Of a stretch of DNA of 64,000 bases, positions 2,592 to 48,193 are shown one piece after another. Position 1 is the stretch's first letter. Each line of letters starts with the position of its first letter. Under the pieces are notes generated by a model that saw only the letters and a program-made list of their open reading frames with translations, was not told the DNA's origin and did no database searches. Origin of the DNA: Hydnum rufescens UP504 (lineage: Eukaryota > Basidiomycota > Agaricomycetes > Cantharellales > Hydnaceae); assembly GCA_014904985.1 (NCBI GenBank), contig MU128937.1, positions 124,001 through 188,000 of the forward strand. Reading direction: 5' to 3'. The position numbers and the translations under genes are program-made.

Positions 2592-3742
2592 CTATGTCTC
2601 TGCCCACGTCTCATCCCCAGGGCCTCTTGGCTCGTCCAATGCGGGTTGTCTGGGCCGTGAGTGGTCCTGGGTTTCGCCTCCGAGCGCCTCGTTTAACTAC
2701 ACCATATCCACCAAAATTTTTCAGCAATCCGGAGAAAGTGTAGGAAATGACGAATGGCATACGTCCACCTGGAATCCCACATAATATTCCTTCTGCTCTC
2801 CAGTACATTCCTCCCTCCAGCGAATCGGAACGACAGATATAAGGTTCAAAAATGCTTCCCCATCTCGTCCTGTGCAAATGATACAATCCAAGGCAGGCAG
2901 CAGTACGGTTAGGACACTACTTGATCACTGAATGAAAGGCAAGAGAACAACGTACGGTAGTTTACGAGGGACGCTTGGCATTCTTGGCCCAACATGAGAG
3001 ACCGCTTGAAAGCTTCGACGGCTTGACTCCTATGGGGCTGTTGTGGGAATGTTACTCCCCCATGTCGCCCAGTAGCATCTGGGGGCGGATATTGTAGGAA
3101 TCGCTGTACATGAAATTAGTGGGTGTCAAGGGCGGCAATGTGCGCATTGGGAAAATAGGTCAAAAACGACGACATTGGTCGTCGGAAACGTGTTGTATTG
3201 CTTACGCAATTTCGCCCAACGATCTCCTCCCGAGAGTATCCCGTAAGTTTATGGAAGTTCTGCGAACAGTAGACGATGGGGAAATCATCCTTTGTCCCGT
3301 CCACGACTACGAAGCTGACAGAATCGTCCACAGGTCCCAGTTCGATCTTGGGGTTGGGCCTAGTGTATACGCGGGAGAGAACGGAGAGGGTGTCAAACTG
3401 GGTGGTGGAATAGAGGCCCGAATGGTTACTTGAGCCGGCTCCCATCTGAAACTGGCTCGGAGTAGCCTGTGAATGCATCAGACGAGTGCGCTCGCGAAGC
3501 CGGGATGTACGGTGCCACTGGTCGACGTCTCTCCATAACAACGTTACTGGAAGAAGGAGACGGATGTGGTGGATGCGACTTGTCTGGTGATCCATCTATT
3601 CTTTGATTCTGATTGGAATGGGCCGGAAACGAAGGGCCCGAACGCCATGTGCGTTCGTCGCTAAGAGCTAGGGATACCTCTGAAAGCAAGGTCAAGTTGT
3701 ATCATAATACCCCATTACGATGTGGGGATCCGCACCAGTCAT
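2592..3742 (-). CDS. Short white-collar-1-type LOV-domain photoreceptor
   Basis: Flavin-binding blue-light sensor domain of the fungal WC-1 type. Exons on the minus strand give LSVLSRVYTRPNPKIELGPV, then FHKLTGYSREEIVGRNC. An intron follows, then RFLQYPPPDATGRHGG, so GRNCRFLQ with the flavin-reactive Cys is intact. Next come NYRRDGEAFLNLISVVPIRW and EYYVGFQVD, the end of the LOV fold. The intron at 2762-2697 (GT..TAG) then leads to a tail of about 34 residues and a TAG at 2594-2592. No PAS-B, PAS-C or zinc finger follows, and the otubain gene ends only 165 bp away, so there is no room for them. The N-terminus is Ser/Pro-rich. The start at 3742 (MTGADPHI followed by a 44-bp intron) is tentative, and an upstream exon at 5021-5283 is possible. 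It could be a VIVID-like LOV-only protein or a truncated WC-1. Confidence 0.8.
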
Positions 3743-5524: not shown

Positions 5525-8193
5525 TTAGGCGTCAAAGGGCGACTTGAATGAATCATAAGACCCTTGCTCTCGCACAGTTCTGTTACGTGGGGGTGCAAGA
5601 GGTCTCTGAGAGGGGGGGTGCTTGTTATTGTCGTTGCCGTATGTGCCTCCTACCGACGTTTGTGCGCGTCTAGTAACCGGCGGAGGTGGTGGTGGTTTCT
5701 TTCCGGTAATAATAGACGAGAGCTGGCGCCGGTTCATGCTCGGTCTTTGGGCGGGAGATGGGAGCAGTGGATCCGCAGTCAAGGAAGAGGGAGGTAAGAG
5801 ACCATCTTTGTCTCGGTGAGCTTCTTGTACACTATCACCACCGTCAGAGTCACCGTATCCAAAGTTGTCGTGTGTAGGGCTGTACGCCGCGTTCTGATAT
5901 CTGTGGGCATGATGTTGCTTGTTGATATGGTGTTGGCGGTGAAACTCGTCATGGACACCAGGACCAGCTGACGTGCTGGCATTCAGGTGTTCCCGTCGCA
6001 AGAAGAGATCAGGGGAGCTACTGCTTTTCTGGTTAGGTGGAGGGAAAAAGGATTGTTCTTGACCGGCACGATCGTCATCGAAAGGTGTACGAGAAGTAGC
6101 CAGACCTTTACGGTCGTCGTCTACACCATGTTCGCCACTGTTGGGGGCATCATCCTCACTATACGAATCGAAACTTGTGGGGTCGTCGTTCTTCATGATT
6201 GTGCGATTTGTACGGCTTCGTTCCACAGGAGGGGCCGAGACTTCGCGAGTATAATTGAACGGGATAAGGCCTGTTTGTCCTTTCAACTCCCCTTTGACCC
6301 ACCCATCCGTGCCTGAACCCAGAGGCTCGTCCTCCAGCAGTCTGATAATGTCGCCCTTTTCGAAGGCGAGCTCACCAGTAGCTGTAGCGTGGAAGTCATA
6401 AATTGCTTGCACGGTGCGCATCTTCGATTTCGCGTTCTTCGAGTAAGTGGAAAAGGCAGACGAAGGACGAGATGAGACGTCAACTGGGGGAGGAGGTGGT
6501 CGTCGAATCCGCACTGAGCCGGGGCGAGATGGAACCGGACGCTTCGGGCCGCCCTCGCTGGGATTGTGTTCTGACCCATATGCGTTCCCATCACCGCTAG
6601 CGCGGGGTTCATCAACATCCGAGTCATCATCATCGAGAGACTGGAAATTCTTCTTGCTGACGCTGTTCTTGCGGCTCTTGCCGACACTACTGACCCAGCC
6701 GGTGACACGTTTTGCAGCCCCAGGAGCTCCGGTGCTTGCTGAGGTGGCAACACTGTCACTGCGATGACGGGAGGAGAATTTTGAGGCTCCGGGGACGCTG
6801 TTAGGAGTCTGTGCTTGGTCCCCCGAGGGGTCCGGTTCACGTCTTTGTTGATCGCGGACAGGGGAGGGTGTAAGACTCCGAGTGGTGGATTTACGACTTG
6901 GCAGGGCTGGTTGACGGGCGAAGATGTGCGCAGCGCCTTGTGGACGGGAAAGATCGGCATTGCTCACTGAGGAGCTGCAAGACCAAAAACCATTGGTCAT
7001 GAGGAATCTTCTAAAGATAAACGACTCCAGACTCACATATCTGGCCAATCCTCTTGCAGCTTCAGTAGCGTTGCATAGTATTCAGATACATAAGCTAGTT
7101 CTGTCTTAAGAAATTTGGTGAGGTCCGCGAGTTGTTGAATTTCGTGTTTTTGGATCCCTAACATGCGCTCCTGAACATCCGTTGACATTTCGTCACTGGG
7201 AGAGGTACATATCGTCAACTATACAAGAAACAAAGGCTAGAAAAGACCTACTAGCGTGTGCGTGCAAGATCAAGCTCTTGTTCGGCCTCTGCCTTCTCCT
7301 TGACCTTCTTAGTTTTAGGGACTTTGGTCATGGCTGCATCGAGAGCTAATCTAAGAGAGATTCAGGGCGAGGCACCATTAATTGATGAAAGGACCCACCG
7401 TCGTGAGTCGAGTCTGGATGTTAGCATGATTAGTGAGTGTGAAGACACAAGAAGAACATCGCCTCACTTCTTCCGTTGTGTATAATATTCTTTGATGGAC
7501 CCAATCTGTTCCTCTAGACTGCGGTGGTAAGTCTCCTTGAGAGCCGCTGAATATTCTTCTTGCAGAGTTGCAATCCTACAGTGCTCGCGGCCGAATTTGA
7601 CAAGCGTATTACCTGCATATATCGCATGAACTTGTGTATTGCCCAACATAACAAGCAAATAAATGGACCATAGACAGATCCATCACCAAACTCATTCCCA
7701 TGACCGATCATAACGAGTCCGAGAGCTTCTACTGGATGCGTCTTGCCCGAAATCGTATCTACGTCAATTTCTATCTTCTTGGTCAAGGCTTTGATGTACG
7801 CCTCAGACACCACGCTTAGTCTGTTATAATGTCAATTAGCAAGAATATTCTTATCCGTGAGGAACACATGGCATACCGTTCGACGCTGTGGACAGCGCCA
7901 AGAGAATTAGGTAAAATTCATGGGCGAGAGAACAAGGAACTGACCCCGCGCCACGCAGATTGACATCGGTCTCCAATTCCTATGGGATACAACGTAAGCA
8001 TGAACTACTTGGTGAATGGTGAACGAGGCGATACAGCACCTGGAAGTCCTCCGTGAGCGTGACCTTGTTACTTCGAGATACCTTCTCGCCAGCCCACTGC
8101 CTGAGCTTTCCGATCTATTCACGCCGGAAATATGAGCAGCCAAGCCAACCTTATCCCACCACTGTGCACTCCACTGACCTGTTTACTGGCCAT
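5525..8193 (-). CDS. BAR-SH3 protein (endophilin/amphiphysin-like)
   Basis: Membrane-curvature scaffold expected at endocytic sites. The first exon reads MASKQ, then after an intron IGKLRQWAGEKVSRSNKVTL. The BAR domain follows over several short exons: ELETDVNLRGAG, VSEAYIKALTKKIEID, LVKFGREHCRIATLQEEYS, MLGIQKHEIQQLADL and LAYVSEYYATLLKLQEDWP. The long last exon (about 7000-5525) encodes a Ser/Pro-rich linker and an SH3 domain with the signatures AIYDFHATATGELAFEKGD and TGLIPFNY. After the SH3 comes a tail with Pro runs (KKPPPPPPV) that could bind other SH3 domains, ending KSPFDA and TAA at 5525-5527. ATG 8193 is chosen because MASKQ joins in phase to the BAR N-terminal helix. A degenerate copy of exons 2-3 lies at 13770-13985. 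Confidence 0.85.
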
Positions 8194-8903
8194 GACTGAT
8201 GTTGTCGCCGCACCGAGGCATTCCCTCACGTGCCCTTTTTGATTTGTCAGTATCTCGCTGGGGAGATTGCCGAACCCGACCCGACTACTGACGCCGACTC
8301 TCGCGCCCTAAAAATCCCTCGGGCCCAACCGATGCCCTATGAAGTGCGAGGCTTCATTTTGATTTTTTCTGTGTGTATCCTTCTTCCCCGCCCCCCTGGC
8401 ATCCAAACCATATCCCATCCTAGCCATCAATACTTCAATAGAGAAAAACCTGGAGGGACTTGATTCAATTTCTGGTGTTCGATATCGGCTATCGGCTTGG
8501 CGACACTCGCGCCTGGGGCACAGGTACAGGCACAATTATCATTGTTACTGCTTTAGTCGAATATACCCCTCAACTTGCCAGAGTTGGGCTACAACGCAGC
8601 GGTCATCTTTGTTACCTCGACATCTTCATTGCGTCACACGTCAAAGAAGGCCAGGCAAAAAATTTCTTTCATTGAGCTGGATTTATGACGCATACAGTTT
8701 TGTTCCACAAATGTAGAAGTACAGATTGGATACATATCCCTCTCAGGAATGATGAAGAATACAAATCCAAATGATACGAGTGACGGCGAACGAAGATCGA
8801 ATACAAAAAGGTTGACAGTGAACGAAGAATGAGCAACGTCTTTTGCGAGAAAAAGCACACCTTGTTGTCGGGCCCCCCGAAGAGGGTCAACGAAGATGGC
8901 TAT
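8194..8903. other. Intergenic, with 3' flank shared by both fusion-gene copies
   Basis: No gene supported. The segment at about 8690-8890 resembles 18165-18355, which lies in the same place downstream of the second fusion gene. Shared stretches include TTGTTCCACRAATGT, GATACAAATCCAAATGATAC and AGAAAAAGCACACC. The duplication therefore includes the 3' flank of the enzyme gene. Confidence 0.6.
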
Positions 8904-11900
8904 CTATGAGTCCCATACGGGACCGAAGCAGGCGATACCCCGCTTGGCGCACCCTCGGCGGATCTCAGCCGTCCCCTGTGGATTACTGGTGGCGAAAACG
9001 CATTCGAAGGGCATATTAAGCGTTTCGAAGAGTTCGGGGATGAGTTTCTCCAAGTTGGGTCTGCCCTTTATGCGAGTGTCCCACAAGGTCACCACATCCT
9101 CGAATGTATCGCCAGACCCGTCTGTTGCAATTCCTTCCCGAAGGTCTTTTAGAACCGTGGTTCCGTATGTCTTCTCGAGATTACTGCCAAAGATACCAAT
9201 GTCAGCATATGGCTCTGCTGACCAAGAGAGAAGTTAAACACACCTGGATATCCAGAGCAAATGCCACTTGCTCTTGGGGTCGCGTTGTAAGAAAGGGGAG
9301 AGTCCAACACCGATAGCGGATCCAGTAACAACATACAACCCGCAATGGTACATGGGGCATATGTAAGGGAGCCCGACGAATTTATACTGCCGAGTCCAAA
9401 GATGTGTGGGTGGATTGGCGATGAGATCCAGAGTAAAGTCGCCCTGGCCAACGACACACATGTAGTGCTCGTTAGAGGATCGCGACCTGCTCGCGATCCC
9501 GAAGGCGTGGTTCTCCTTCAAAGGGTGTCTTGCAACTCGCCCAAAGAGACCGCTTCCGACGCCACCTTGGAAGCGAAGCAGAACCACAGTTGGAGAGAGG
9601 ACTTCAGCTTTAATGGGAACCTTTCGCAGCGTCGTCCACCCAATGAAGATGGATACGGTAATCACCAGAGACAAATAAATATCGGCAGTTTTCGCCATGT
9701 TCGAAGCAATAAAGCGATGTTCAGTCACAGACCAACTGTTAGCGAGACATACGAGTATCCACAAGATCCCGAGCCCGGTCCACCCTCCCAATCGATGGAC
9801 GTTCTCGAAGACATTGTGGTAGTTGTTGCGGATTGCGGGGTATGCGCTTATAGCAACAGCCACGAGCAGGGAGCATGCGATGACACTGAAGGCGAGGATC
9901 GAGTGGTGAATCAAAGAAGGCCCCGCTCGGAAGAATTCGATCGTTGCAGTGATAACCCACAACGTCCCCGAAAAGGCGAAGCCCGAGTGGAATCCGCCTA
10001 CGTGGAGTAGGAGGTGTGCAATGGAGTCGCGGAACCACCGTGGGGGCCAGCGTTTGAAGAAGAAGAGAATAATCGCGTAGAATGAGCGAAGGAAAATTTC
10101 ATTGCGAACAAGGAGAGCAGCTAGGATATTTCCAAGGGCGATAGTGGCGACACGCTGTCGCCCACCTTCCCACTTGTGAGCAAGGGTGAACCCAATGCCG
10201 ACGGCGTTGAGCGAGAAAACGAAGGTGAAAAACATGCGGTAAAATGATAGCCATTCGTTGATTCGCCTGCCAAGTGTTGAAGCTGGTCTTTCTCGCTTCT
10301 CTCGTGCTAGAACCGGAATTTCGGGGGGGAAACGGTAATCAGATAATTTCGGGTTCTTCTCCATATCTGGGGTTATGTTCGAAACATCTGTCCCAGACTG
10401 AGTCGATCCCTTCTCACTCTCCGCCAATGTGCTTTCTGAACGGCGGCGTTCAACAGCCAAAGTGGCGGCGAAGGGGCGGGAGTCTGTGATATCGGCACCT
10501 TCAGACGAAAGGGGAGGCTCCACGAGGAGCTTCTTGAGCTCGCGCATCAAGATCTTTCCACTAGGCAGTTTCGGGATAGAGGCGATAAAGTAAACGTCAC
10601 CAAGCCACTTATATTGCGACTATCGCGAGTTTATTCGTGTACGTTAGATGCTGAGCGACGAGGAAGAAGTGAGGGTCCCTAACCTTGCTCGCCCGTACAT
10701 GCCACATGATTTGTTCTTTTACTGATGCAGCATTACGCTCAGCAGCTTCGTTCCCGGCCTTGGTTAGCACGACAAATGCGACCGGGGTTTCCCCAGCACG
10801 ATCATCGGGCTTTCCAACGACGCCGACGTCCTCCACAAAATGGTGAAGCAGAAGATGGCCTTCGAGCTCGGCAGGGCTGACTTGGAATCCCTGCGGTGTG
10901 CGATACCTTAGGAACGAAAGCGGGCGACGGAAAAATTATCAACGGACCTTGTGCTTAATGATATTCTTGAGGCGATCTACGACAAAGATGTCACCGTTGG
11001 GGCGAATTTCGACCTCATCTCCAGTACTATTTGGAAGTCAGAAGTGAGACTGCAACAAGGAGTATAAGTAGGCATACCGAACAAAGCCGTCAGAGTCAAA
11101 AGTGGAGGCATTTGCAGCCTCGTTATCAAGGTATCCGCAACACAGCTGGGGTCCACGAATAAGCAATTCGCCTCGGGATCCCCCAGAAACAGGGTTGTTG
11201 TTCGAATCCACGACTTTGTACTCGATCCCAGGGAGGAAGCGTCCAATAGATCCCGAGCACGGTTCGGCACCTTCCAAGAGAGAAGTGCAGAGTACTGGGG
11301 AGGGTTTATTATGCACATGAGAGGCCTAGTTAATAACTGGTATAAGGTAACATTACCTGTTTCGGTCATGCCAAATCCTTGAGATAGCAAGAATGAGGGA
11401 CCACCTAGCTTTCTAAATGCCGACTCTCTATCAGCATCCAGCGGGCGGCAGCAACAATGCAGGTTTTGAAATAGTCGAAGTGTCGTCCTGCAGCCGCGGG
11501 ATGCTTTAAAAATGCATTGACCAGCGGTGGCGCCAAGAATAGATGGTTGACTCTCAGAGACTCTATGATATCGAGGAAACGCTCGAAGGGAGGCATGGAA
11601 CTGAACAATACCGAGGCGATACCGAGATAGGGGCAGACGAGGAGGAGTGTGAGGAGGCCGAACAAGTGGGAGGATGGAAGTACACCGAGAGCTTTGTCCC
11701 CAGGGGGAGAATTAGCTCCTGGGATAGCCGAAGCAGTTACCTGAAGAATATTGGCTATTACGGCCGAGTGAGGGACGATAACGGCCTTTGGGGAGCCGGC
11801 TGAGTGTTCAGGGAGGTGCATTGTGAGCAAGACAATACATGCGACATAGTCAAAAACGCACTAGTTCCACTGCTGAAACAAAGGAGTGCAACAGAACGCC

Positions 11901-12571
11901 CTGAAGGAATCGGACGTGGAGGCACGATCTGTATTCCTCGGGCCATTGCTTCATTGCCGATGCCAATGAGATCGTCGATGGTGTAAAGGGAAACGCCGGG
12001 TCTGTGTGTGGGACGGAAGTCTTGAGTTGGAAAGGATAAACAATAGTCAGGAGAGTCTTACGAACAATTTATTCAGTAACCCCAAGTCTTTCAAGGTTCC
12101 TCGAGCTAGAACAACGACTTTGCTATGAGGAATGCCCAATGAGTGGGCGGCTTCGAGGACACGATCGAGAGTGCTGGGGTGTGCAAAAATGGCGGTAGTT
12201 CGGGAGAGACGAAATTGGTGGATGAGCTCGTCGACAGTGCTGCTTGCGCTGCAGGGCGCAACGGTGCAACCAATACGATGGGACGCCCATACGCAAGATG
12301 CGAAATCGATGTCGTTCGGGGAAACGATGGCGATGACTGGACCAAGGGTGAAAGGTCGAACTGAAAATTCCTCCTTCCGAACTAGGACACTGAGGTCAAG
12401 ACGCTGCTGAAGACCAGTGGCAAGAGCGTCTGTTCGTTTCTTTACATAACCCGCCGTGTAAGTTTCCCCGGTGAAGGCCTCAATAAACCACGGGGTATCG
12501 TAGGAAGAGGCAGGGAGTGAACCAAGCATAAAATCATAGAGAGTTCTTGTGTCGTTGTCGGACGAATACAT
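8904..12571 (-). CDS. Adenylate-forming / ferric-reductase-like fusion protein, copy A (TmpB-like)
   Basis: Large fusion enzyme. The N-terminal half is an ANL adenylation domain: YDFMLGSLPASSYDTPWF, the phosphate loop SSGTTGSPKAVIVPHS (across the intron near 11820-11870), QGFGMTETG, GELLIRGPQLCCGYLD, and the C-terminal subdomain Lys motif KLPSGKILMRELKK near 10530-10570. After a linker of about 120 residues comes a multi-spanning membrane part (EWLSFYRMFFTFVFSLNAVG, LLVRNEIFLRSFYAIILFFF, FENVHRLGGWTGLGILWILV). A flavin/NAD-binding reductase part follows (HPLKENHAFGIAS, GSAIGVGLSPFLQRDP, and the last exon ending CAKRGIACFGPVWDS). Aspergillus nidulans TmpB, as I recall it, is an adenylation/TmpA-like fusion linked to conidiation signalling; substrate here is unknown. 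No carrier-protein domain is seen. The frame breaks at about 11443-11445, where GGG replaces the GGGG of copy B. Confidence 0.75.
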
Positions 12572-13130
12572 GATGGCCAAGGTCGCTGAGAATGTGACGA
12601 CGAAAACAGGACTCGTATGATGGGGGCCTGAGCGTTCGTCCAGGCAGGACGGGTTTATATGTGCATGAACGACGAATAGTGGTATCGCCATGAGCAGAGC
12701 GCTTGCGAAAAGAGGCAGCGGCTCTTAGGCGAGTAGCCGGGGGTTTTGTATGGACCCACGACGATAGAGCGGACTAGTGATGGGGATCCGCCCTTGTACG
12801 GAAGTCCTGAACGTGGGCGTTGAACGGGCGATGAACTGAACGTCCATTGAGGAAATATTAGCAACCGTCGCTAGACGCAAAATTGTTCATAAATATCATG
12901 GGGTAAGCTGGTATTGTGAGTTGACGACATCCTTGCGGCTGGGTGGAAGCCTACTTGGATTGAGAATAATGAGACGATGTGCGAGCCGTGGCAGCCCTAA
13001 GCGGAGAGACGGAAGGCCACATGACAAGAGAAACCTCTGGATAAAGCAGAAAACGATACCACGAGCATTTCTTCGCCAGGCAGAGGTGAGTCGGCTTCAA
13101 CATCCAAGCCGACTGCAGTAATTTCAAATA
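12572..13130. other. 5' flank of copy A, homologous to the 5' flank of copy B
   Basis: Non-coding. Similarity to 22100-22700 continues upstream of the ATG: GACATCCT, TTGAGAATRRYRMGA, GTGACAAGA-type and GAGTCGGCTTC blocks occur in the same order. The duplicated unit therefore includes the promoter. Confidence 0.55.
12654..12660 (-). promoter_or_regulatory. Candidate TATA box of copy A
   Basis: Minus strand reads CACATATAAACCC about 85 bp before the ATG at 12571. Copy B has the matching CACATATATAATCC at the same distance. Conservation of position between copies supports the call. Confidence 0.5.
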
Positions 13131-13769
13131 GTGGGCGGAGCTTGTGAGGCTCGGCAGATCCAAGCGATATCTGTTCGGATATCCCCGAGAAATCCCGCCT
13201 TGCCTCCGCGTCATCGACAAGAATCATCCGATACTGCGCTGTTGTTGCCATCTCTTGTGTAGATAGAGCCCTAGCCACCCGCGACGGAGCTTGCGGAAAG
13301 CGAAGTCTTGCGAATTTTGCGAAATATTGCACATAGGGACAATAGCGACACTCGAATTTGAATACAGATGCCGAACGGACCCTTTTAATAAAACTTCCCG
13401 AATTCGCGTGGCTGTGAGGCTGCCTCGTTTTCAAAGCTCCAGCCGGCGCGTACAGGTTTCACATGTCCGCCCTGGTGCTATCACCACATCGCCATCTGCC
13501 TCAAACTTATCAATTTCTATTTAAATCCATTCTTTTTCACCTTGTGGTGGCCCAATGTATCGTTCGCGATGTCAGCGAGAACAAAAAGGAGTCAAAACTG
13601 GACCTGACTGACTCAATTCAGTTGGCAGATGGGTGCATGGCTGTAGAGTGGCCATTACCGATCAGTTACCAATGGGAGTTCTAGTGGATACCAGTAGCCT
13701 GAAGGCAGCCGCCCAAGACCCCTCGACACCTCGGCTTATATGACGCAGGCAAGCTCGGACTAAATTTGA

Positions 13770-13985
13770 GGGGCATCCTCATAATAAAGCATATTAAGGA
13801 TATCCTCATGGGTAGGGAACATACACTACGGCATACTGTTCGACGCCATGAAAAGTGCCCAGACAATGTAGTCAAAGCCCATCACAAGAGGAGGAACTGA
13901 CCCCGCGCGCTAAGCACTTTCCACTTCCTATGCGATAGAACGTGAGCACTAGCTACATGGTTAACGGTAAAACGGCACTAGTGAA
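13770..13985 (-). pseudogene. Relic of BAR-SH3 gene exons 2-3
   Basis: Degenerate copy of the BAR-gene segment at about 7820-8030. Shared blocks in order are GGCATACYGTTCGACGC, AGGAACTGACCCCGCGC, TTCCTATGSGATA and AACGTRAGCA, separated by small indels. The exons that read AVHSVER and ELETDVNLRGAG in the intact gene are mutated, and no open frame remains. The relic lies between the two fusion-enzyme copies, as expected if the ancestral tandem unit was BAR gene plus fusion gene. Confidence 0.65.
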
Positions 13986-16900
13986 CGGTGCATACAAGAA
14001 CCGCCGAGATAGCGCTTGCTCCATCGGCGCTAATTCGTGGCCGAGGCCAACCGCAACACCAAATCCGGGATGTGCACCACAGAATGCGGAGTGCCTAGAA
14101 ACATGGGTGTTGCCCTGTGTTACTGTCACGCATCACGGGCGGCTAATCACGCCTTGGCGCCTTTGAAACTCGGAACAAATTTTTGGCCCAGCTTGACACT
14201 TGGTCTTCAATGATGTCTAAGCCCCAGTCACAGACCGCAGGTCACAGGTCACAGAGGCCTCACCCATCCAGGCCACCTGGGGCAGTTGACTTGGCGACTG
14301 GTCACATGTCACAAGGGTCGCGGGGCTTGCCGTAAACCCGTGCCTGGGGGCTACGTAAAGTCACGTGGGGGTTTAAGGCCGTATCACTCCAGTATCATCG
14401 AAATGGCACAGTATTTCTCCCGTCGCCGCTTTCGATTCGATTACAATTTGCATCTTTCCATGCCATTTATTCTTTCCCGCCTTAACCCCTATCAACGCAG
14501 CTGGAAGGGTTTTTCCCCATCTAGATTTGTTCCATGCACTAGTTCTCATCCCAATATAGTACTGATACCGAAGGCCAATGCCATAACTTGATTTGATCAT
14601 CTCTCGTAGACTGGTGACACAATATATTCAGCACATGGACCATACCCAGGTCAATTGAGAATATTCTTGCAATCTCGTTACAATTTACATTCAACATTAC
14701 TGCATCTGTGCCCTTATAACAAGACGATTTCGCTTATGATTCCAGGATCCTGGGGCTGTCCTTTATGTACTTTCCGGATCAAAATTCACAATCGCGTATT
14801 CTGTCTGGCAAGTTTACATCATTTTCACCATGACGCAACAACCAGCGCGCACATCCAATTTTCTCTAACGGGTTGTCCACCGCGACATACCTAAGACGTG
14901 GGTGCCGACCTTAATTTCCTCGGCACGTTATCAGCTCACCGTGATCGTGATTCTGACATGCCTTCAGAGTGAACAGCCATGCAGATCTTCACTTGTTTTG
15001 GCATGTTCTCCTGAGTTTGGTGTCGACTAGATACAGAAGTCCATCTGGTACCAGATCCGAAATTAATTGATTCAGTGACTACATGGGATGGGCGAGCTCT
15101 CATCACTTAGTCAGCATATTTGTTGGGATATACTGAAGTTCCCAAGCATTTGTTGGAATTGGGGATGGGCGAGCTGACGGTCATCGCTTAGTCAGCATAT
15201 CCTCTATATAGTTCCTCGGGTGTGCCGAAGTTCCCTCTATCTTTCCTCTCGTTGTGCGAATCTAAGTGGCTCCACACCGATTCGTCAACAGCATTTGCTT
15301 GAGCTCTGATCAAGCACTCTATCTCTTCTCTGTTGTGTAAATATAAGTGTCTCCGAACCCATTCTTTAACATTCATATTCCACCAAGTCATCCCATCTGT
15401 TCGCTGGCGTTCATGTTGAGGATACAGTCGATGGGTCTTATTCCCATGTCAGTTTTCGGCACCTTTAATTTTAATCTTACCAGAACTCGGGAGTCTTTTT
15501 GTCACGTGATTGATGTTCCCGGTGCCGTCGTTAGATGTACCTTCACTGTCTGCCAAATAAGGGAAAAAACGAATTCATGGTTAATCTACTACTCCTGCGC
15601 AACGGAAGGGGGTGCGGGGTGTCGTCGCAATACCTCCGCTACCAAATAAGCCAATTCACTATTAGTGACTAATATTCTGGCCCCTGTGCGCGGAACGAGG
15701 TCCGATGGCATCCCCACAGCCGTTATTAACAAGCTTCGCGCAGCAGACAGGGCCTACAGGGTACCCTCATAATGCCTAGTCCCACGGAAGTTCCCGTCCC
15801 GTTTATACTATATTTGGTTTGGCGTTGAGTCGGCCCATTGGATCGTGGGAATAAGACCCATCTTGAGTGATGGCAGTTGCCGAAGAGGTTTCGGGGTCCC
15901 CGTCCACTACGTCCAGTCCTGGTGCGACCCTCACCAGGAACCCGCTGTAACGCCATGTTCTTCGGTCTCGCATAATTAATTAATTGTGGATGTACTCGGA
16001 GATAGAGGACTTGTCAGGCACCACAGGCGCCTGCTTGCTTGCAAATCATTCCGTGTGCTATTGTGTCGAGGAACGAAATGTCCGAACCAATCGAAAGCCA
16101 GGAAGTGCAGGTTTATTACATAATTGTGGCGGTGGAAGCGACTTGCAAGCAAGGTGACTACTACTATATGGTTGCGACCAGGCGCAGCAGTGAGAAGAGG
16201 TCCCCTGCATGCTCTAGGGCAGGCGGCATCCTGGTTCCCTCATTTTACCTAAAAACTTGTGTGCAAATTCACTGATTTGGGAAGTACAATTGGCTTCTAA
16301 CATTATAAAAATGGAATAGAACCGCCAGTAACCAACGCAAAACGGAAGCCCTTGATTCCGATTCACAATAGATTTTAGAAGTAGTACGTAGGGGGCCTGA
16401 GGAGCTCCTCAGAGGTGCGGTCATTGTCGTGGCTGGTTCCAGCCTGAGGCCGTGGGATGTTCCCCTTTCTGGTAATAGGTATTTATCTTGGGTTTTCAAG
16501 ACCCTCGCCGGGGATCCCGGCGAAGATGCCAAACAGGGAAGACAACCACTTGTCATCAATCACAGTCACCTTCCAGGTGGCATGGCCCCTGTGAGCTCTA
16601 CGGTAGGCAGTAGTATCCCGCCGATCCGAGAATCTCTCCCAGAATCATTTAACATTTGGGTCAAAATCGCCTCCAAAACCAGCGAAATTGGGGTCTGCCT
16701 CGCCTGCTGGGGCTCCTGAAATCGGTGAGCCTGGAGCCTAGGGTGGGGAAACTCAAAAAAAGCATCCCAGACCCTCAACAACGCTCCAGACGCACTCCCC
16801 ACGCGGTTCCTTCTCAAATTAATTGACGTTCCTCCACTATTTCATTCCCGTCATCCGCCTTTTTCCAATGTCTTGCCATGCGAGGTCGCCTTTGTCATTT

Positions 16901-18110
16901 CTGTCAGCTCGGCGAAGATGGAATCAAGACTCCGTTGGAGCAGAACAAAAACGTAGTTCGGCTCAGACTGGAGTTGAAGAAAACCATCGCGACCGTGTAC
17001 AGTAGTACTCCAAAACCCCAAAAGGAGTGCAAGCATTGACGCCTAAACGGGAACAGCTTAATGAAAAGAAGCTGACCCCCCTTGACCACGACCCGATCAG
17101 TGAACTGGCCGCCAGGTTAGGAGGAGCCTAAATCAGTGAATTTTCCTACATGTTTTGGGCCAAAATTGCCCTCAAAATCGGTGAGCCCATAGAGCTCGCA
17201 GGGGTCCTGCAACGGCAGGGCCTCTCGTATCGGCGTACTGTACTGTAGTGTTGAGCTTAGGTCATCGTCACTTGTCACAGTGGCCTCATGTCATGGCTCA
17301 GAAGGGCAGTTGGGCAACTTCAAATTGAACCGTTCCTATACATGGCGGGAAAGGACTAAATTTGGGAATCAATTTTCTATTTGTGATCCCCTCAAAGTCC
17401 AACAATCTATCACGTCACAAGCCACAAGCTCGCAAAAGCCGCCGCCACCGATAACAATCCGGTAACATTGCCGTTAAGGCGTTGCAATCTAGATCGAGTG
17501 CTAAATCAACTGTCACACACTCGAAAAAGGTGTTCAGACACTGGTTTAGAGCTTCTGGGGCAATATGCAGTTGCAGAAACCGAATTTTCAATTTGGGAAT
17601 CCACCACAGGCCACTTCGGGAGCCAGAAGACAAAAGGAATGAATGGACTGGGGAACGAGCGAACAAATGGATGAGAAAATGAAAAAGGTGAGCAGCACAA
17701 TTGTGACGTCACAAAAGCTTTCCGGTGTTTAGACTTCGATTGTGTACATACACGTACAGTCATCAACACTATTATCATTGGGTCCAGCACATGCAGATGC
17801 CAATGAGAAAGCCATGTGAACGCCTATCAGGAGCTTCTCTGGAACCAGTTACAAGCAGCTCACGTCACTACTGGTGACCAGGTCACATTTCATATTGCTT
17901 AGGTGCTTAGCTGTGGATCTACAGAGGGAAGCATAGATGGTCGTTGGTCACAGGTTACAGCACTCCACTTTTGAGCCTGATGATGCACCGGTTTAACTCA
18001 ATATGGATCGCGAGGCGATAGATGCTGAAACACTGTGTATAGTTAGTGCACACCCTTTTCAATGAAGTTCAATCGCAATCTGACCCCTAGTCTCAACAGT
18101 TCGAACTGCC
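13986..18110. other. Gene-poor insert with degenerate repeats
   Basis: About 4 kb without any recognisable gene. The corresponding interval in the first unit (BAR 5' end to fusion 3' end) is only 0.7 kb, so most of this looks inserted. It has repeated GTCACAG/GGTCACA words (14225-14310, 17265-17290, 17870-17960). Two related stretches at about 16650-16730 and 17145-17190 share TTTGGGYCAAAATYGCCYYCAAAA and AATCGGTGAGCC. I see no transposase, reverse transcriptase, LTR pair or terminal inverted repeat. Confidence 0.45.
15085..15378. repeat. Two adjacent imperfect direct duplications
   Basis: GGGATGGGCGAGCT...CTTAGTCAGCATAT occurs at 15085 and again at 15162 (period about 77). Directly after, CTCTATCT..TCTC..GTTGTG..AAGTGKCTCC occurs at 15235 and 15317 (period about 82). 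A minus-strand frame of 67 codons spans both and reads as an internal protein repeat (WVRRHLYLHNREE, VWSHLDSHNERKD), but its product is not recognised. Confidence 0.6.
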
Positions 18111-18354
18111 ATGTGTAATAATGTATATCCTAGAGGTAATATTCCGCATAACTTCTAATAAGGTTATTGTTCCACGAATGTGGAAGTACGAGTATGTGTG
18201 ATGGAGGATACAAATCCAAATGATACAAGTGAGCGCTGGGGAACGAAATTCGAATGTAAAGGTAGATGGTGAACGAAAAAATTAGCAAGAAGTTTTTTTT
18301 CCAAGAAAAAGCACACCCCGTTGTAAAGCCCACCAAGAGGGGCAACGAAAGTGG

Positions 18355-21300
18355 CTATGAGTCCCATACTGGACCAAAACAAGGGATACCTCGCTTGGCA
18401 CAGCCTCGGACGATTTCAGCCGTCCCCTGTGGATTACTGGTGGCGAAAACGACTTCCACGTTATGCCGTTCAACGAGCTCGGGGATGAGCTTCATTAACT
18501 GGGGCCTGCCCTTTTGCCGAGTGTCCCATATGGTAACCGCGTGCTCGAATGCAGCTTTCTCCTCGTCTACTGCATATGACTCCCGCAGATCTTTCAGGGC
18601 CGTTGTGCCGTACGTCTTCTCGATATTACTACCAAAAATACCAGTGTCAGCAGGTGCCCCTGGTGAATAAGACAGAGTGAAACATACCTCGATACCCAGA
18701 GCAAATGCCACCGGCTCCGGGGGTCTCGTTGTAAGAAAATGGAAAGGGCGACACCGATAGCGGATCCAGTGCAAACATACAACCCGGATCGGTAGAAACT
18801 GCACATGTATGGCAGCCCGACGAATTTATATTGGCGAGTCCAAAGATGAGAAGGTGGATCGGCGATCAGACCCCGAGTAAAGTCGCCCTGGCCGACGACA
18901 TACATGCAATGCTCGCCGGAAGACGGTGACATGCTGGCGATCCCGAATGCATGATTCTCCTTCAAAGGGTGTCTCGAAATCCGCCCAAAGAGACCGCTTC
19001 GGTAGCCATCCCGAAACCGAAGTGCAACCACTGAGCTAGAGAGGACTTCAGCTTTAACGGGAACTTTCCGCACTGTCGTCCACGGAAGAAAGATGCATAT
19101 GGTAACCGCCAGGGCCAAATAAATGTCAGGATCGTTCGTTATCCTCGAACCGATGAAACGATGCTCAGGCACAGACCAACTGTTGGCGAGACATACGAGT
19201 ATCCACAAGATCGCGAGCCCAGTCCACCCTGCCAATCGATGGACGTTCTCGAAGACATTGTGGTGGTTGTTGCGGACCATAGGCATGGCACTAGCACAGA
19301 CCGCCAAGAGCAGGACACCTGCGACAACACTGAAGGCGAGGACCGCGGGATGCATCAAAGCAGGCCCTTGTCGGAAGAATTCGATTGTCGCAGTGACAAC
19401 CCACAATGTCCCCGAAATACCGAAGCCCGAGTGGAATCCCCCTACGTGGAGTAGGAATGTCGCAATAGCGTCGCGGAACCACCGTGGAGGCCAGCGTTGG
19501 AAGAGGAAGAGAAGAACCGTGTATAGTACGCGAAGGAAAATCTCATTGCGAGCGAGGAGAGCGACGAGGATGTTTACAAGGGCGTAGGTGGCGACACTTC
19601 GTCGCCCCTGCCCCCACCGATGAGCAAGGGTAAACCCAATGCCGACAGCGTTGAAGGAGACGATGATGATAAAAAACATCCGGTAATAGGACATCCATTC
19701 GCGAATCTGCCCTGCAACTGTCGGAGCTGCTTCTGCACGCTTCTCCCGTGCCATACGCACGGAATCATCAGAGAAACCATAATCGGATAATTTGGGGTTC
19801 TGCTCAATATTCGCGATCACGTTCATTAAAGTCTGCGTATCTGGCCCAAAAGTGGCGGTAGAGCGAGCCGAGGTGCTTGGAGAGCCCGGAGAAACCGGGG
19901 GCTTCAGAGAAACTGAGGGACCCGGGATTCCATCTATCAATGTGCTTCCTGAAAAGCGGCGTTCATCGACCAAAGTGGCCGCAGAGAAGCGTCGGGAGTC
20001 TGCGATATCGGCTTCCGGTGCAGGCGAAGGGAGAGATTCCACGAGAAGATTCTTAAGCTTTCGCATCAAAATCTTTCCGCTAGGCAGTTTTGGGATGGAG
20101 GCGATAAAATAAACGTCACCAAGCCACTTATATTGCGACTATCCGGAATTGATTCGCGGACGTTAGACGTTGAACGAGGAAGAAGTGAGGGTCATTAACC
20201 TTGCTTGCCCGCACATGCCACATGATTTGCTCTTTCACTGAGGCAGGATCGCGCCCGATAGCGTCTTTCCCCGCCTGGGTTAACACGATGAATGCTACTG
20301 GGGTTTCCCCAGCGCGATCATCGGGCTTTCCAACGACGCCGACGTCCTCCACAAAATGGTGAAGCAGAAGATGGCCTTCGAGCTCGGCAGGGCTGACTTG
20401 GAATCCCTGCGGTGCGCGATACCTTAGGAACGAAAGCGGGCGACGGAAAAATTATTGACGGACCTTGTGCTTAATGATATTCTTGAGGCGATCTACGACA
20501 AAGATATCGCCATTGGGTCGAATTTCGACCTCATCTCCAGTACTATTTGGAGGTCAGAAGTGAGATCGCATTAAGCAATATAGATGGGCGTACCGAAGGA
20601 AGCCGTCGGAGTCGAAAGTGACGGCATTTGCAGCGTCGTTATCAAGGTATCCGCAACACAGCTGGGGCCACGAACAAGCAATTCGCCTCGGGCTCCCGCC
20701 AAAACAGGGTTGTTGTTCGCATCCAGAATCTTGTAATCGGTCTCAGCGAGGAAGCGTCCAATAGATCCCGAGCATGGCTCGACGCCTTCCAGGAGAGAAG
20801 TGCAGAGTCCCGCTGGAGTGGATTTATTACGTACGTGAGGGAGGTTGTTAATGACTGGTGGTGTAAGGGAACATTACCTGTTTCGGTCATGCCAAATCCT
20901 TGAGATAGCAAGAACGAGGGACCACCTAGTTTCCTAAATGCCGACTCTCTATCAGCATCCAGTGGGGCGGCAGCAACAATGCAACTTTTAAAATAGTCGA
21001 ATTGCCGTCCTGCGGCCGCAGGATGTTTCAAAAACGCACTGACTAGGGGTGGCGCCAAGAATAGATGGTTGACTTTCTGAGCCCCTAGAATATCGAGGAA
21101 GCGGTCGAAGGGAGGCATCGAACTGAACAATACCGAAGAGATACCGAGGTAGGGCAGACGTGGATTAGGGTGAGGAGACCGAACATGTGGGAGACTGGGA
21201 TTACACCGAGAGCTTTGTCCCCGGGGGAAGAATTGACTCTTGGAATAGCTGACGCAGTTACTTGAAGAATATTGGCTATTACGGCCGAGTGAGGGACGAT

Positions 21301-22099
21301 AACGGCCTTTGGGGAGCCGGCTGGGGGTTGGAGGTGCATGGTGAGCAAGGCAACACATCCCGCATAGAAAAAAAAAAAAAACGCACTAGTTCCACTGCTG
21401 AAACACAAGAACGCAACAGAACGGCCTGGAGAAGTTGGACATGGAGGTACTATCTGTACTCCTCGGGTCATTGCTTCGTTACCAATACCAATGAGGTCGT
21501 CGATGGTGCAGAGGGGCGCGCCAGGTCTACGTGTAGAATAGAAGTCTCGAGTTGGAAAGGATAAACAATAGGCAAGAGTGTCGTACGAACAATTTATTCA
21601 GTAACCCCAAGTCTTCCAACGTTCCTCGAGCGAGAACAACGATCTTGCTGCTAGGAATGCTTAATGAATGAGCGGCCTCGAGGACACGGTCGAGAGTGCT
21701 GGGATGTGCGAAAATGGCGGTAGTTCGGGAGAGGCGAAATTGATGGATGAGTTCGTCGACAGTACTGCTTGCATTGCAGGGTGCAACGGTGCAGCCAATA
21801 CGGTGGGACGCCCATACGCAAGACGCGAAGTCGATGTCGTTCGGGGAAACGATGGCGATGACTGGCCCGAGGCTGAACGGTCGAACCGGCGTTGAAGGTT
21901 GCTCCTTCTGAACTGGCACGCTGAGGTCGAGGCGTTCCTGAAGACCAGTGGCAAGAGCGTCTGTTCGTTTCTTAACATAACCTGCCGTGAAAGTTTCCCC
22001 GGTGAAGGCATCAATGAACCACGGGGTGTCGCAGGCAGAGGGTGTGAGGGCCCCAAGCATGAAATCATAAAGTGTCGTGTCGTGGCTAGGCAAATGCAT
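18355..22099 (-). CDS. Adenylate-forming / ferric-reductase-like fusion protein, copy B (TmpB-like)
   Basis: Second tandem copy with the same domain order as copy A: adenylation domain (YDFMLGALTPSACDTPWF, GSPKAVIVPHS, QGFGMTETG, GVVGKPDDRAGETPVAF), linker, membrane segments (EWMSYYRMFFIIIVSFNAVG, FENVHRLAGWTGLAILWILV) and reductase end (HPLKENHAFGIAS, GSAIGVALSIFLQRDP, CAKRGIPCFGPVWDS, stop at 18355). The ATG at 22099 matches the start of copy A. The linker is longer than in A. Compared with A, two bases are missing in C runs of the coding strand, at 21152-21154 and 20664-20667, each shifting the frame. It may be a pseudogene or may carry consensus errors. The intron near 21370 contains a 13-base homopolymer. 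Confidence 0.7.
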
Positions 22100-24410
22100 G
22101 ATGGCCAAGGTCGTTAAGCGTATGACCCCCGCCAGACAGGACTCTTATAATCGGGGCTTAAGAGTGTTTGCAAGGCGGAAGGGGGATTATATATGTGCAT
22201 GGAGGGCGAATCGCTCTATCGCCATGAGCAAAAACCCCTGACAAAGGGTCGGCACTCTTAGCTGGATAATCGGACCATTTGTGACTCACGACGATAGTGC
22301 GGAGTGGTCACAGAGATCCGCCCCGTATGGAAATTCTGGAAAATTAAAAGTGGCCCTTGAACGGCATTGAAGTTGGACTTCCACGCCCCTAAAGAAAATC
22401 CATAAGAAGGCCACGTTTCATGAAGAATTGGTCGTAAAGCTCACAGGGTAGGCTACGATTGAGAATTCGCAACATCCTGACGGTTAGCTGGCGGAAGCAG
22501 GCCACTCTTCTCGATTGAGAATGGCACGATGGGTCAGCACGGCAGCTTTTACGCGGTGCGGTGTTCCACCGCGTGACAAGAAAAATAAGGGGGAAAAAAC
22601 TGTGGGAAAAAGCAACAAACAATAGCAGCAGTCCGCTTTTGCTGGGCGGAGTTGAGTCGGCTTCGGTTGATCTCTTTCAAGCGGTGTTGAGTCGGCTTTC
22701 AACGTTTCAAATTGATTACGTACTACAAAAAGCAAAACAAACCCGCCAGATCTCACACCAGATTAATATGAACGATGCCAAGCAGACTTCGACCTCGGTA
22801 ACCCGCCACTTTGGTGACCTTTGCCTGCTCCTCGTAACCCGACACGCACCCCCGTCAACTTTTCTTACCAAAAAGGGTACATCTTCTTGCGATCCAAAGC
22901 ATGCCGGGACCAACCGGTTGCATACCGCCTCCATGTCGGCCCTTGTGAAACGTTTTGTTCCTATATACATATCTGATTCTGTGCCTATATTTTTGGTTGT
23001 GCCTCATGATATCAATACCACCTTGAGCTCGCAGGGGTCCTAGAACTCGAGGAGTGTGTTGAAGATTGAGTTAGTGGACGTGATGACCCATTGTTGGTGC
23101 GATTCAAGGACCGCGAACATACACTAAACATACCTGCATTTCTCTCCCTCTGCCAAGATTTCCAATGTGGGATGTCAAGCGTTTCAGCGGCCCTGGGCAC
23201 GGCTATTGTACATAAATATGGACGTGCAGGGGTAACTCATCTCAAAAGTAATCAAGATGTGGCGTTGGCCATGTAATCGGGCCCCCGCTTTCTCCCCGGT
23301 CGTCGAGGCTAAGTTTGTTCATTCACTCGCACATTGGATATTTTCTCAACGGCATCTTTCTCTGGACCGTCTACCCGGACATGGAATAATTGCGATATCA
23401 ATTTTTGGTTGTAAATAGCGTTGATCCTTCCACAACGAAACAAACGTTTGCCGCCCGTCGTATGGTACCCTGCCCATCTCTGCGGGTAAGAGTCTCTCTC
23501 ACCAAAGTACCTTGCGCATAACCGCCATGCACATTAATATTACAGTAAACTCCAGTCACTTGCTGTTTCGAGCTTCGCTCTCAACTCTAAAGTGCCCGAT
23601 TCTATTTATGTCAAGTCGGTCCGACTGTCATTCTTTAGTACGTCGATCCATGACGTCGGTTTACATGTCATCCTGAGACGAATTTGTCCAATACAAATGC
23701 CACTACTGCCTTGCCACTCAGGAGTCCCGCCTGGCCTCGAGACGGCTATCTAAAAATCCAAACCAAACCTCTGGTCGCTTTCGTCATATTTCTTACGCAC
23801 AGCGACGACATATTAGGCCAGGTGCCATCAATACGACATCTGTCGTACGATCCAAATCTAGCGCCATCCACACACACGGGTCGCCTAAATGTTTCCTCCA
23901 CAGTACTAATACTCATTTTGTTTTGACAAGGACGATCTTCATCTCCCTGGGATCCCAGTGACATATATTGGCTCCCCGAGAGCCATTTGGCCTGGTCAAA
24001 TTGTCATTCGCCATCCGCGTCTCTATTTCGGACACGGTCGGGACGTTTACTGACACTCGCTGAGAGTACTCGTATAGCAATCACCGTCAAGTCCTCGTCC
24101 AAGATCCAATTTGGATGATTCGACCTCGGGACAACGGTCCGTCCATACTGTTCGCAGCAGGCCAGGGAATTAACAGAGTCATGCTCGGACTCAGCGGAGA
24201 CCGGCATTCATGCTCAGCAAGACCTTGCATTCGAACGGCTGTTCACATCGTCACTCCAAGGCATACATCCAACCTACACTATCCACGGATTCGACAAGAT
24301 CTCTTGTGGGCATCACTGAGACCATTAGCCGCGCCGATAGCTTGCGGCAGGGTGCGGTCCCTCCAGCACGAAAGATAGCTTCGCATGATACCCTCCAACG
24401 TTCTCGATTG
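22100..24410. other. Intergenic, no gene supported
   Basis: The first 0.6 kb is the duplicated 5' flank of copy B; GAGTCGGCTT occurs twice, near 22653 and 22689. From about 22730 to 24410 I find only short frames without domain signatures on either strand. Confidence 0.45.
22186..22194 (-). promoter_or_regulatory. Candidate TATA box of copy B
   Basis: Minus strand reads CACATATATAATCC about 90 bp before ATG 22099, the same place as the element before copy A. Confidence 0.5.
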
Positions 24411-25313
24411 TCAACCATTCGCCCTCATCCCAGTGCCAATTGGAGTCGGCGACGTTCTCGCTTCAGCATCATTACCAAGTTTGAAAAAGCTGGGCCGAAA
24501 TGCCAGAGTGCCCTCGAGCGGCGTCATCTCCTTGTGTCGTTCCTCAAAGTCCAAAATAAACTTGAGAGAGAAACAGGAGCCATCGCCAAAAGGTCAACAC
24601 CCCAACAAGGTTAACAACGGGAGCCCCCCTTGTCGACAAAATAAATCCGTTACCTTTGAAACATTCGCGCCTGGATTCACACTAAACCAGGGCTGCTCCA
24701 TCATCCTCTTAACCGCCGTCTTGGACCATGGACCAGAATCTAAGTCTCCCGGAGGTGCGTAACGAAGTGAAGCCCTGAGGACGTCTTGAATGTTGTATTG
24801 CACGTCCTCAGAGGCACCGTCGTAAATCACAGGGGAAGTAGGAGGGCTAAAGCTTCCGCAAAAGAACGCAGCCCAGCAATGTACTGGCTCGAGAGCTTCA
24901 TGATAGTCGAGTCGAATACGATGGTATGTTTGAGCATGAACGGTGTCGTGGATGACATACTCTCCATAGCTGGATGATTAAGAAAGAGGATCTCGAATTT
25001 GGCCTCCTGATTAATACTTTTGCGTAAATAAAAATAGAGAATGAAAGCGGAAGGGAGAGGGTGCTACTTGGAAGGTAAACTTGGGCAGCGCCCATGCCCC
25101 GGTGTTGATCTGCCGGCCGAGTTCGAACATCACAATATGTTTGTCCTCGGGGATCTCTACCCCAATGGCCGCTTCGATTGCGGAAGAGCTCCAGAAAGGG
25201 GATGGGGTGATCCCAGATACATTGGAAGGCAATAGAGCTTGAACAAAGGCCTTCGGTAACAATGCGACGATGCACAATACATCGTAGGTGCCGACAACAG
25301 TTCCCAGACCCAT
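24411..25313 (-). CDS. Possible acetoacetate-decarboxylase-like protein, frame interrupted
   Basis: Exon 1 (ATG 25313) reads GTVVGTYDVLCIVALLPKAF, VQALLPSNVSGITPSPFW and KHIVMFELGRQINTGAWALP. After a 60-bp intron comes EAKFEILFLNHPAMEYVIHD. The Tyr-Leu-Leu-Pro and 'ExKxEIPF' pattern resembles the acetoacetate decarboxylase fold, seen only by eye. Near 24930 the likely frame switches to FMLKHTIVFDSTIMKLSSQY and IAGLRSFAEA. It then switches back to VIYDGASEDVQYNIQDVLR, QPWFSVNPGANVSK and, after an intron, FILDFEERHKEMTPLEGT. It ends at TGA 24413-24411. No GT..AG introns explain both switches, so this may be a pseudogene, hold C-run errors, or be spliced in a way I cannot see. Upstream exons are possible. 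Confidence 0.35.
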
Positions 25314-45912: not shown

Positions 45913-48193
45913 ATGCCCACCCCTCACGTCACTCCATTCGTTCTCGGCGCCAACAGTTACTTCTATCATCCAGAGAATGCCTGTGAGCATGTCTGGGTGC
46001 AGTTCTTTACTTCCTGGTATTGTTCTCACATCCCTGGTGCTCCCAGTCCTTGGAAAGGGTAAGCTTGTCGTCTTTAAAAATTGTAGCGACCGTCCATCTG
46101 ACCGCCGCCCTGGCTTGTAGATCTCGAGTACTTCTCCCAAGCCGGCTTCGACATGGACCATGTACAGTTGAAACGAAATGCGCCCGTCGCTGAATTGTAC
46201 GAAGACGCCATTCGTTATGAAGGTGCCATCATCTCCGCATCAGGCGCTCTTATCAACTTTTCGGGCAAGAAAACTGGTCGCAGCCCCAAGGACAAACGTA
46301 TCGTTTATGAAGAGACGTCCAAGGATGATATTTGGTGGGGACCTGTAAACATCAAGATGGACGAGCGTCGGTCTCAATCTATCTTAATCGTGCTTCTCGG
46401 AGTCTAATCATATTCCTTATTCAGACACATTTGAGATCAACAGAGAAAGAGCGATCGATTACCTCAACACCCGTGACAATGTTTATGTCTTCGATGGCTT
46501 TGCTGGAGTGAGTGTTTTGTATTGACCCCGTTGGCTCTGTGTTCACGTTTCCGTCGACGTTGAGTGGGATCCAAAGTACCGGATCAAAGTCCGGGTGGTC
46601 TGCGCCCGTGCATATCATGCCCTCTTCATGAACAACATGCTCATCCGTCCCACGGAAGAGGAACTCGCCCAGTTTGGCGAGCCTGATTTTGTTATTTACA
46701 ATGCTGGTCAATTCCCTGCCAATCGCTTCACAACTGGTATGACCAGCACAACTTCCGTCGAGATCAATTTCAAGAGGATGGAAATGGTTATTCTTGGGTA
46801 AATTCCTATCATTGTTCGGCCCTTGGATGATATCTGAATTGCTTGTCCCGAATTCCTTTCACGTAGGACCGAATATGCGGGGGAGATGAAAAAGGGCGTT
46901 TTCAGTGTCATGGTATGCCGATCCATTTCCAGTTATATTATCTATTATTTATCTAGGGGTTTTTCGACAGCATTATCTCCAGCCGGTGAAGTTCGGGCAG
47001 CTATCTCTTCATTCATCGGCAAATATTGGTATGGAGAAGGGCGATGTCACCCTTTTCTTTGGCCTTTCTGGGACCGGGAAGACGTACGTGCTGCTCCACC
47101 ATACTTGTTGGTTTGGGCGATCCATTGACTATTTAATGTAGCACGCTGTCCGCGGACCCTAACCGCGAGCTCATTGGCGATGATGAGCACGTTTGGTCAG
47201 ATACTGGTGTGTTCAACATCGAAGGTGGATGCTATGCTAAATGCATAAACCTCTCCGCTGAGAAGGTTCGTGGTTTCGTCCTTTTCGGGGACGTCCTCCG
47301 TTCTTATCTCCCACGCCCCATAGGAGCCCGAAATTTACAGGGCGATCCGGTTCGGGTCCATTCTCGAGAATGTAGTCTTCAATCCTGCGAACCGACTACC
47401 AGATTACGACGACGTATCCACTACCGAAAATACTCGTTGCGCCTACCCCATCGAGTACATCCCGAATGCGAGGATTCCTTGCATTGCTGACCAGCACCCG
47501 AGCAACATCATCATGCTTACCTGCGATGCCTATGGTGTCCTCCCGCCAGTAAGCAAGCTAACCAGCGCCCAGGCACAATACCACTTCCTTGCCGGTTATA
47601 CCTCGTAAGTATATCGCACCGTTATTCCGGTCGTGTTTCTATTCTTAGACGTTTGCTCGAAGGAAAACACCAGGTACTGAAGATGGCGTGTTGGAACCGA
47701 TCCCGACGTTCTCGACGTGCTACAGTGCTCCATTCATTGTCCTTCACGTATGTCATTTGCTCTGCCTGCAGTACGGGGGTGGGAGGCTTACTTTTGGGTT
47801 GCGCAGCCTGGTCGATACGCTTCGATGCTAGCTTCCAAGATGGAGTCGACCCAAGCTTCCTGTTGGCTGATCAACACAGGTTGGGTTGGTGGTAAATTTG
47901 GGACAGGATCACGCTGCCCGCTGAAATACACCCGAGCGATTATCAATGCAATCCATTCCGGTTCGATCGCGAGTGCCACGTACACGACGTACGATATCTT
48001 TGGCCTGCAGATTCCTACGAGCGTGGAAGGGGTACCCAGTGAGGTTTTGAACCCACGGATGGCGTGGGAGGATACGGAGGCGTTTGAGAAGGAAAGGATT
48101 AGACTTGCTAATATGTTCGCGAAGGCTTTCAAGGGCTTTGAGGATCAAGTTGACAGCGCTGTTAAATCTGCTGGTCCAACCGTCACGATCTGA
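45913..48193 (+). CDS. PCK1: Phosphoenolpyruvate carboxykinase (ATP), intact copy
   Basis: Cytosolic gluconeogenic enzyme converting oxaloacetate and ATP to phosphoenolpyruvate, CO2 and ADP. ATG 45913 opens [14 protein letters not shown]. Exons follow with [76 protein letters not shown] (P-loop), [92 protein letters not shown] and [20 protein letters not shown]. It ends [12 protein letters not shown] with TGA at 48191. Introns near 47084 and 47751 close in phase. I found no frame break in the exons read. A second, inverted and broken copy lies at 62899-64000. Confidence 0.9.

What the first reader, a model, noticed from the sequence alone, without database searches (positions are those of the whole stretch)
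5525..22700. Tandem duplication of a BAR-gene plus TmpB-like-fusion unit, with one BAR copy reduced to a relic
Seen: two full-length fusion genes (8904-12571, 18355-22099) share gene body, 3' flank and promoter including the TATA position. A degenerate fragment of the neighbouring BAR gene (exons 2-3) sits at 13770-13985 between them. Inference: the ancestral unit was [BAR]-[fusion], duplicated once, after which the second BAR gene was almost wholly lost and about 3.5-4 kb was inserted before fusion copy B.
Basis: partly seen in the sequence, partly recalled or inferred. Interest (0 to 1): 0.75.

Follow-up and report, generated by a model that had tools for sequence, protein, structure and literature searches.

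The report
Old tandem duplicate with gene remnant
A stretch of a fungal genome carrying a redox-enzyme-like gene and the start of its neighbour was copied next to itself long ago; both enzyme-like copies were kept while the neighbour's copy decayed to a fragment among mobile repeats, which is an ordinary kind of genome evolution.

Summary
Two co-oriented TmpL/TmpB-like fusion genes (8904-12571, 18355-22099, minus strand) match at 80% over 4,382 aligned bases, flanks included, with a TATA-like site 88-95 bp before the ATG in both. Searches of the 63.2 Mb assembly found these two copies and no third. A decayed, co-linear piece of the BAR-SH3 gene lies between them, longer than reported: 13652-14049 against 7698-8096 (score 167; best of 500 shuffles 68). 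The spacer before copy B is a net 3.5 kb longer, about 1.2 kb of it dispersed repeat. That a whole second BAR gene existed and was lost is not shown: the remnant ends 27 bp from a repeat fragment and no trace of the rest of BAR was found, so it may have been cut short at birth. New: a 191-bp tract with 3 mismatches spanning a whole intron, best read as gene conversion; dN/dS 0.16-0.42 and no stops in the long exons; one (A) and two (B) frame breaks in the adenylation exons, recent or assembly errors. Ordinary; low interest.

The parts
5528..8193 (-). BAR-SH3 gene, the only full copy found
   Evidence: SH3_1 E 3.4e-12; BAR PF03114 E 2.9e-31 on hand-spliced exons; relatives with BAR+SH3, e.g. 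Cantharellus anzutake 50% over 98%; one DNA match, itself, in the assembly
8904..12571 (-). Fusion copy A, TmpL/TmpB-like: AMP-binding domain, membrane segments, putative nucleotide-binding region; one frame break in the adenylation exons as assembled
   Evidence: mechanical splice model
12572..13129 (-). 5' flank and promoter of copy A shared with copy B, TATA-like site 88-90 bp before the ATG
13474..13624 (.). Fragment of a dispersed repeat (19 other places listed at 68-73%) between the copy A 5' flank and the BAR remnant
13652..14049 (-). Decayed BAR remnant co-linear with 7698-8096 (parts of exons 2-5); stops in all three minus frames
   Evidence: score 167, best of 500 shuffles 68; blastn core 13830-13971; translation; no other copy found in the assembly
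15085..15372. Dispersed repeat (35 of the 45 rows, about 32 separate places, 70-87%)
15430..15862 (.). MITE-like element with perfect 17-bp terminal inverted repeats; partial relatives on three other contigs
16195..17208 (.). Inverted-repeat element or nested repeats: both arms match one locus on another contig; 16593-16793 inside it matches a further contig
18199..18354 (-). 3' flank of copy B shared with copy A (8750-8903); the similarity probably starts some 30-45 bp earlier
18355..22099 (-). Fusion copy B; two frame breaks in the adenylation exons as assembled
22100..22712 (-). 5' flank and promoter of copy B shared with copy A, TATA-like site 94-95 bp before the ATG
10799..10989 (.). Gene-conversion tract in copy A (3 mismatches in 191 to copy B, whole 74-nt intron included)
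   Evidence: 0 of 2000 permutations reach it; intron 97.3% identical
20315..20505 (.). The same tract in copy B

Best explanation
An old direct tandem duplication copied at least 5.4 kb: the 5' part of a BAR-SH3 gene, the intergenic spacer, a whole TmpL/TmpB-like gene (adenylate-forming domain fused to a membrane oxidoreductase-like half) and its promoter. Shown: homology, order, orientation, limits, decay of the second BAR piece, repeat-bearing extra DNA, a tract of excess identity, and coding constraint between the fusion copies. Inferred: the second BAR piece was dispensable because the intact gene stayed, and was either truncated at birth or deleted; mobile repeats lengthened the spacer; both fusion copies were kept for most of their history, exchanged at least one tract by gene conversion, and work, or worked until recently, as membrane redox enzymes like TmpL. 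The frame breaks are recent mutations or assembly errors.
For: Alignment and limits; two fusion copies and no third found; BAR remnant in the expected order and strand, no other BAR DNA copy found; repeats in the spacer; conversion tract; dN/dS 0.16, 0.42 and 0.31 in three intact pieces, below the 0.5 or more expected if one copy had drifted freely; no stops in the 458- and 483-codon long exons, where drift at 0.25 changes per site would leave about 9; uneven codon phase of the differences in 7 of 12 exon blocks at p < 0.05 (two of the seven rest on 3 and 4 differences); family (passages of PMC2766074 and PMC4804170).
Against: No related genome could be read, so the single-unit ancestor is not shown. 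If real, the frame breaks mean that neither copy makes a full fusion protein. All three lie in the adenylation exons, which random assembly error would not particularly predict. Five of 12 exon blocks show no significant codon periodicity, one of them beside a break. No Pfam or NCBIfam model matched the C-terminal half, so the oxidoreductase role rests on relatives, hydropathy and papers; the structure model failed (pLDDT 46).
Confidence: 0.85

Rival explanations
1. Variant of the best explanation: the second BAR copy was cut short at birth, the duplication breakpoint lying inside BAR exon 5, so no full second BAR ever existed.
For: BAR homology stops inside exon 5 and its counterpart starts 27 bp from a repeat fragment; no trace of the rest of BAR in the 522 bp beside it.
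Against: The fusion 5' flank homology ends at 13129, so 522 bp of other sequence lies at the junction; a later deletion at the repeat fits as well.
Confidence: 0.45
2. Variant of the best explanation: a full second BAR copy was made and then largely deleted.
For: The remnant is co-linear and strongly decayed, and repeats have disturbed the neighbourhood.
Against: No trace of BAR beyond exon 5.
Confidence: 0.45
3. The two fusion copies are an assembly artefact: diverged haplotypes placed in tandem.
For: 539 contigs; ploidy and nuclear state unknown.
Against: dS 0.44-0.62 and 80% identity, a decayed BAR piece and a repeat-filled spacer; neither unit was found elsewhere in the assembly.
Confidence: 0.03
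4. One or both fusion genes are pseudogenes now, because the frame breaks are real.
For: One break in A and two in B against a relative's protein, each a single-base length difference between the copies; the neighbouring BAR-SH3 exon shows none over 491 residues.
Against: dN/dS and the absence of stops in the long exons mean any loss is recent; single-base length differences are a common assembly error (recalled).
Confidence: 0.3

Closest known systems
TmpL of Alternaria brassicicola and Aspergillus fumigatus (PMC2766074: abstract start and passages seen); TmpB of A. nidulans (PMC4804170: passages seen)
   Same: AMP-binding N-terminus followed by about six membrane spans and a C-terminus like that of its relatives; similar length (the A. 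fumigatus ORF is given as 3,357 bp)
   Different: A tandem pair; GSAIG where the paper names GSGIGP as the NAD(P) motif; frame breaks as assembled; location and role untested
ChNPS12 group of NRPS-like proteins: adenylation domain plus ferric-reductase-type membrane domain (PMC2823734: passages seen)
   Same: Domain order; the paper reports the group as over-represented in basidiomycetes
   Different: No tree was made here, so placement in the group is not tested
Fungal BAR-SH3 proteins, e.g. of Cantharellus anzutake
   Same: BAR then SH3 domain, 98% of the query aligned
   Different: Nothing notable in the intact gene; its second copy is a remnant
Tandem duplication with decay of a co-duplicated neighbour and gene conversion (recalled general knowledge)
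   Same: All processes seen here
   Different: Only the particular genes

Membership tests
TmpL/TmpB-like protein | N-terminal AMP-binding domain | tested here: met
   PF00501 in pieces: A E 2.3e-7 and 3.1e-15; B E 1.4e-8 and 1.9e-6, the last at 27.4 bits below the 29.9 cut-off
TmpL/TmpB-like protein | Six membrane spans after it, copy A | tested here: met
   Six hydrophobic segments before the GSAIG motif
TmpL/TmpB-like protein | Six membrane spans after it, copy B | tested here: inconclusive
   Five segments before the motif at the same threshold
TmpL/TmpB-like protein | FAD/NAD(P)-binding C-terminus | tested here: inconclusive
   No Pfam or NCBIfam match; GSAIG in place of GSGIGP; relatives P0001-P0003 align
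TmpL/TmpB-like protein | One continuous spliced reading frame | tested here: not met
   Frame breaks in the adenylation exons of both copies as assembled; may be assembly error
TmpL/TmpB-like protein | Peroxisome/Woronin-body location and redox role | not testable with these tools
   Needs experiment
BAR-SH3 protein (intact gene) | BAR domain and SH3 domain | tested here: met
   PF03114 E 2.9e-31, SH3_1 E 3.4e-12
Tandem duplication | Adjacent, co-oriented, co-linear copies including non-coding flanks | tested here: met
Tandem duplication | Single-unit state in an outgroup | not testable with these tools
Gene conversion | Tract of excess identity across exon and intron | tested here: met
   3 mismatches in 191 bp, 0 of 2000 permutations; its intron is 97.3% identical against 78-86% of ungapped columns in the four other introns aligned

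The most novel reading that the evidence does not exclude
The frame breaks are real, and the adenylation half is being lost in both copies while the membrane half stays open, so that the only TmpL-type pair found in this genome is moving toward a TmpA-like stand-alone membrane redox protein.
Probability: 0.06. Interest if true: 0.5.

Novelty: new member of a known kind. Interest (0 to 1): 0.2.

Why it matters
It is a clear worked case of a duplicated segment in which one gene was kept twice and its neighbour was not, with a conversion tract that would mislead dating. TmpL paralogues are already reported in a basidiomycete (PMC2766074, passage: three in Coprinus), so having two is not surprising.

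Tried and rejected
AlphaFold model of the intact C-terminal exon from five rows: mean pLDDT 46.3, pTM 0.35, so no fold search was run. Rfam at gathering score and ARAGORN found nothing in the window; the tandem-repeat rows all lie beyond 25 kb. Ungapped identity of the remnant (75.5%) was dropped as evidence: unrelated 399-bp pairs average 72% with the same loose aligner (that null's maximum is a near-self pair); the local score is what separates it. An intron identity of 59% printed was dropped because the two intervals were out of register; the gapped value is 51 of 61. The mechanical BAR model was wrong at its 5' end and was replaced by hand-read exon borders. Recombination between repeat copies at both unit ends was considered; no second copy of the 13474-13624 repeat showed in the window. 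Weak similarity 8115-8574 vs 14143-14695 (score 64, null maximum 73) was not counted. Unequal rates: with P0001 alone as outgroup 40 residues differ only in A and 37 only in B; where P0001 and P0002 agree 26 and 14; where all three agree 6 and 1; not taken further. A search for papers with at least two of TmpL, tandem duplication and Agaricomycetes listed 8 of 33, none with TmpL.

Full report
WHAT IS THERE. The window lies in contig 29 of an unnamed assembly of 63.2 Mb in 539 contigs. The BAR-SH3 protein's best named relative is from Cantharellus anzutake (50%), the next from Tulasnella (39%), so I infer a cantharelloid basidiomycete. On the minus strand lie a BAR-SH3 gene, fusion copy A, a BAR remnant, a repeat-bearing spacer and fusion copy B.

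THE DUPLICATION. The two fusion genes and their flanks are the main repeat of the region; at E 1e-6 the only other match in the window is an inverted pair at 47 and 63 kb. Global alignment gives 80.2% over 4,382 columns. Homology starts at least 150 bp past the stop codons (8750/18199) and reaches 13129/22712 upstream (score 158; best of 150 shuffles 76). The TATA-like site starts 88-90 bp before the ATG in A and 94-95 bp in B. One DNA and two protein searches of the assembly found these two copies and no third; the tool calls such counts lower bounds.

THE BAR REMNANT. blastn gives 7870-8023 vs 13830-13971 (69.7%, E 1e-7). With gaps it spans 7698-8096 vs 13652-14049, score 167 against a null of 42.7 +/- 7.0 and a maximum of 68 in 500 dinucleotide shuffles. 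It covers parts of exons 2-5, including a 9-nt microexon, and has stops in all three minus frames. None of 15 protein relatives matches it below E 0.2, as expected of a decayed, intron-rich piece. No other copy was found in the assembly.

WHERE THE UNIT ENDS. No significant match was found between 13130-13651 and the rest of BAR, nor between the far 5' flanks of the two fusion genes (13200-13660 vs 22650-24500, score 47, null 45.6 +/- 5.5). 13474-13624 is a fragment of a dispersed repeat with 19 other listed places at 68-73%; in the seven copies examined the shared sequence goes on beyond these borders. The remnant starts 27 bp from it. Truncation at birth and later deletion cannot be told apart here.

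THE SPACER. From the remnant to the copy B 3' flank is 4,117 bp, against 607 bp in unit A, a net 3,510 bp. About 1,220 bp of it is repeat, including a MITE-like element with perfect 17-bp inverted ends. That end sequence occurs 6 times in the assembly, two of them this element's own ends, and 0 times in the reversed control. The origin of the other 2.9 kb is unknown.

STATE OF THE FUSION GENES. Pfam finds AMP-binding in pieces of both copies. A relative without a named source (P0002, 852 aa) carries AMP-binding and its C-terminal domain. TmpL is described as AMP-binding domain, six membrane spans and FAD/NAD(P)-binding domain (PMC2766074, passages). dN/dS is 0.16 (exon 1), 0.42 (long exon) and 0.31 (last exon), dS 0.44-0.62. 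The differences are uneven by codon phase in 7 of 12 exon blocks at p < 0.05, two of these on only 3 and 4 differences. Drift at 0.25 changes per site would leave about 8.8 stops in the 458-codon exon, and 0 of 1000 simulations had none; both copies have none. Yet P0002 matches copy A in two frames where no intron separates them, and copy B likewise at two places, all in the adenylation exons; each corresponds to a single-base length difference between the copies. They are recent or errors; no reads are at hand.

GENE CONVERSION. 10799-10989 and 20315-20505 differ at 3 of 191 sites; the longest identical run is 100, against a maximum of 69 in 2000 permutations. The tract holds a whole 74-nt intron at 97.3%, while four other introns show 78-86% of ungapped columns identical, so protein constraint does not explain it. 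The permutation treats sites as alike, so the intron is the stronger argument.

VERDICT. The history is ordinary; the loss of a complete second BAR gene is not shown.

Noticed in passing
window 47083-48194 and 62898-64000: An inverted pair, 92% identical over 1.1 kb, reaching the window end; its frame resembles the C-terminus of an ATP-type PEP carboxykinase (name recalled, not tested).
   Followed up: no
window 3116-3595, minus: A LOV/PAS-type piece (YtvA-family model E 1.1e-10, 41.5 bits, below its cut-off of 250), perhaps of a white-collar-like gene (recalled).
   Followed up: partly
window 21368-21381: A run of 14 A in an intron of fusion copy B where copy A has five.
   Followed up: no
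protein P0003: A protein that joins a cyclic-nucleotide-binding domain to a relative of the TmpL membrane half (31% over 77%).
   Followed up: no
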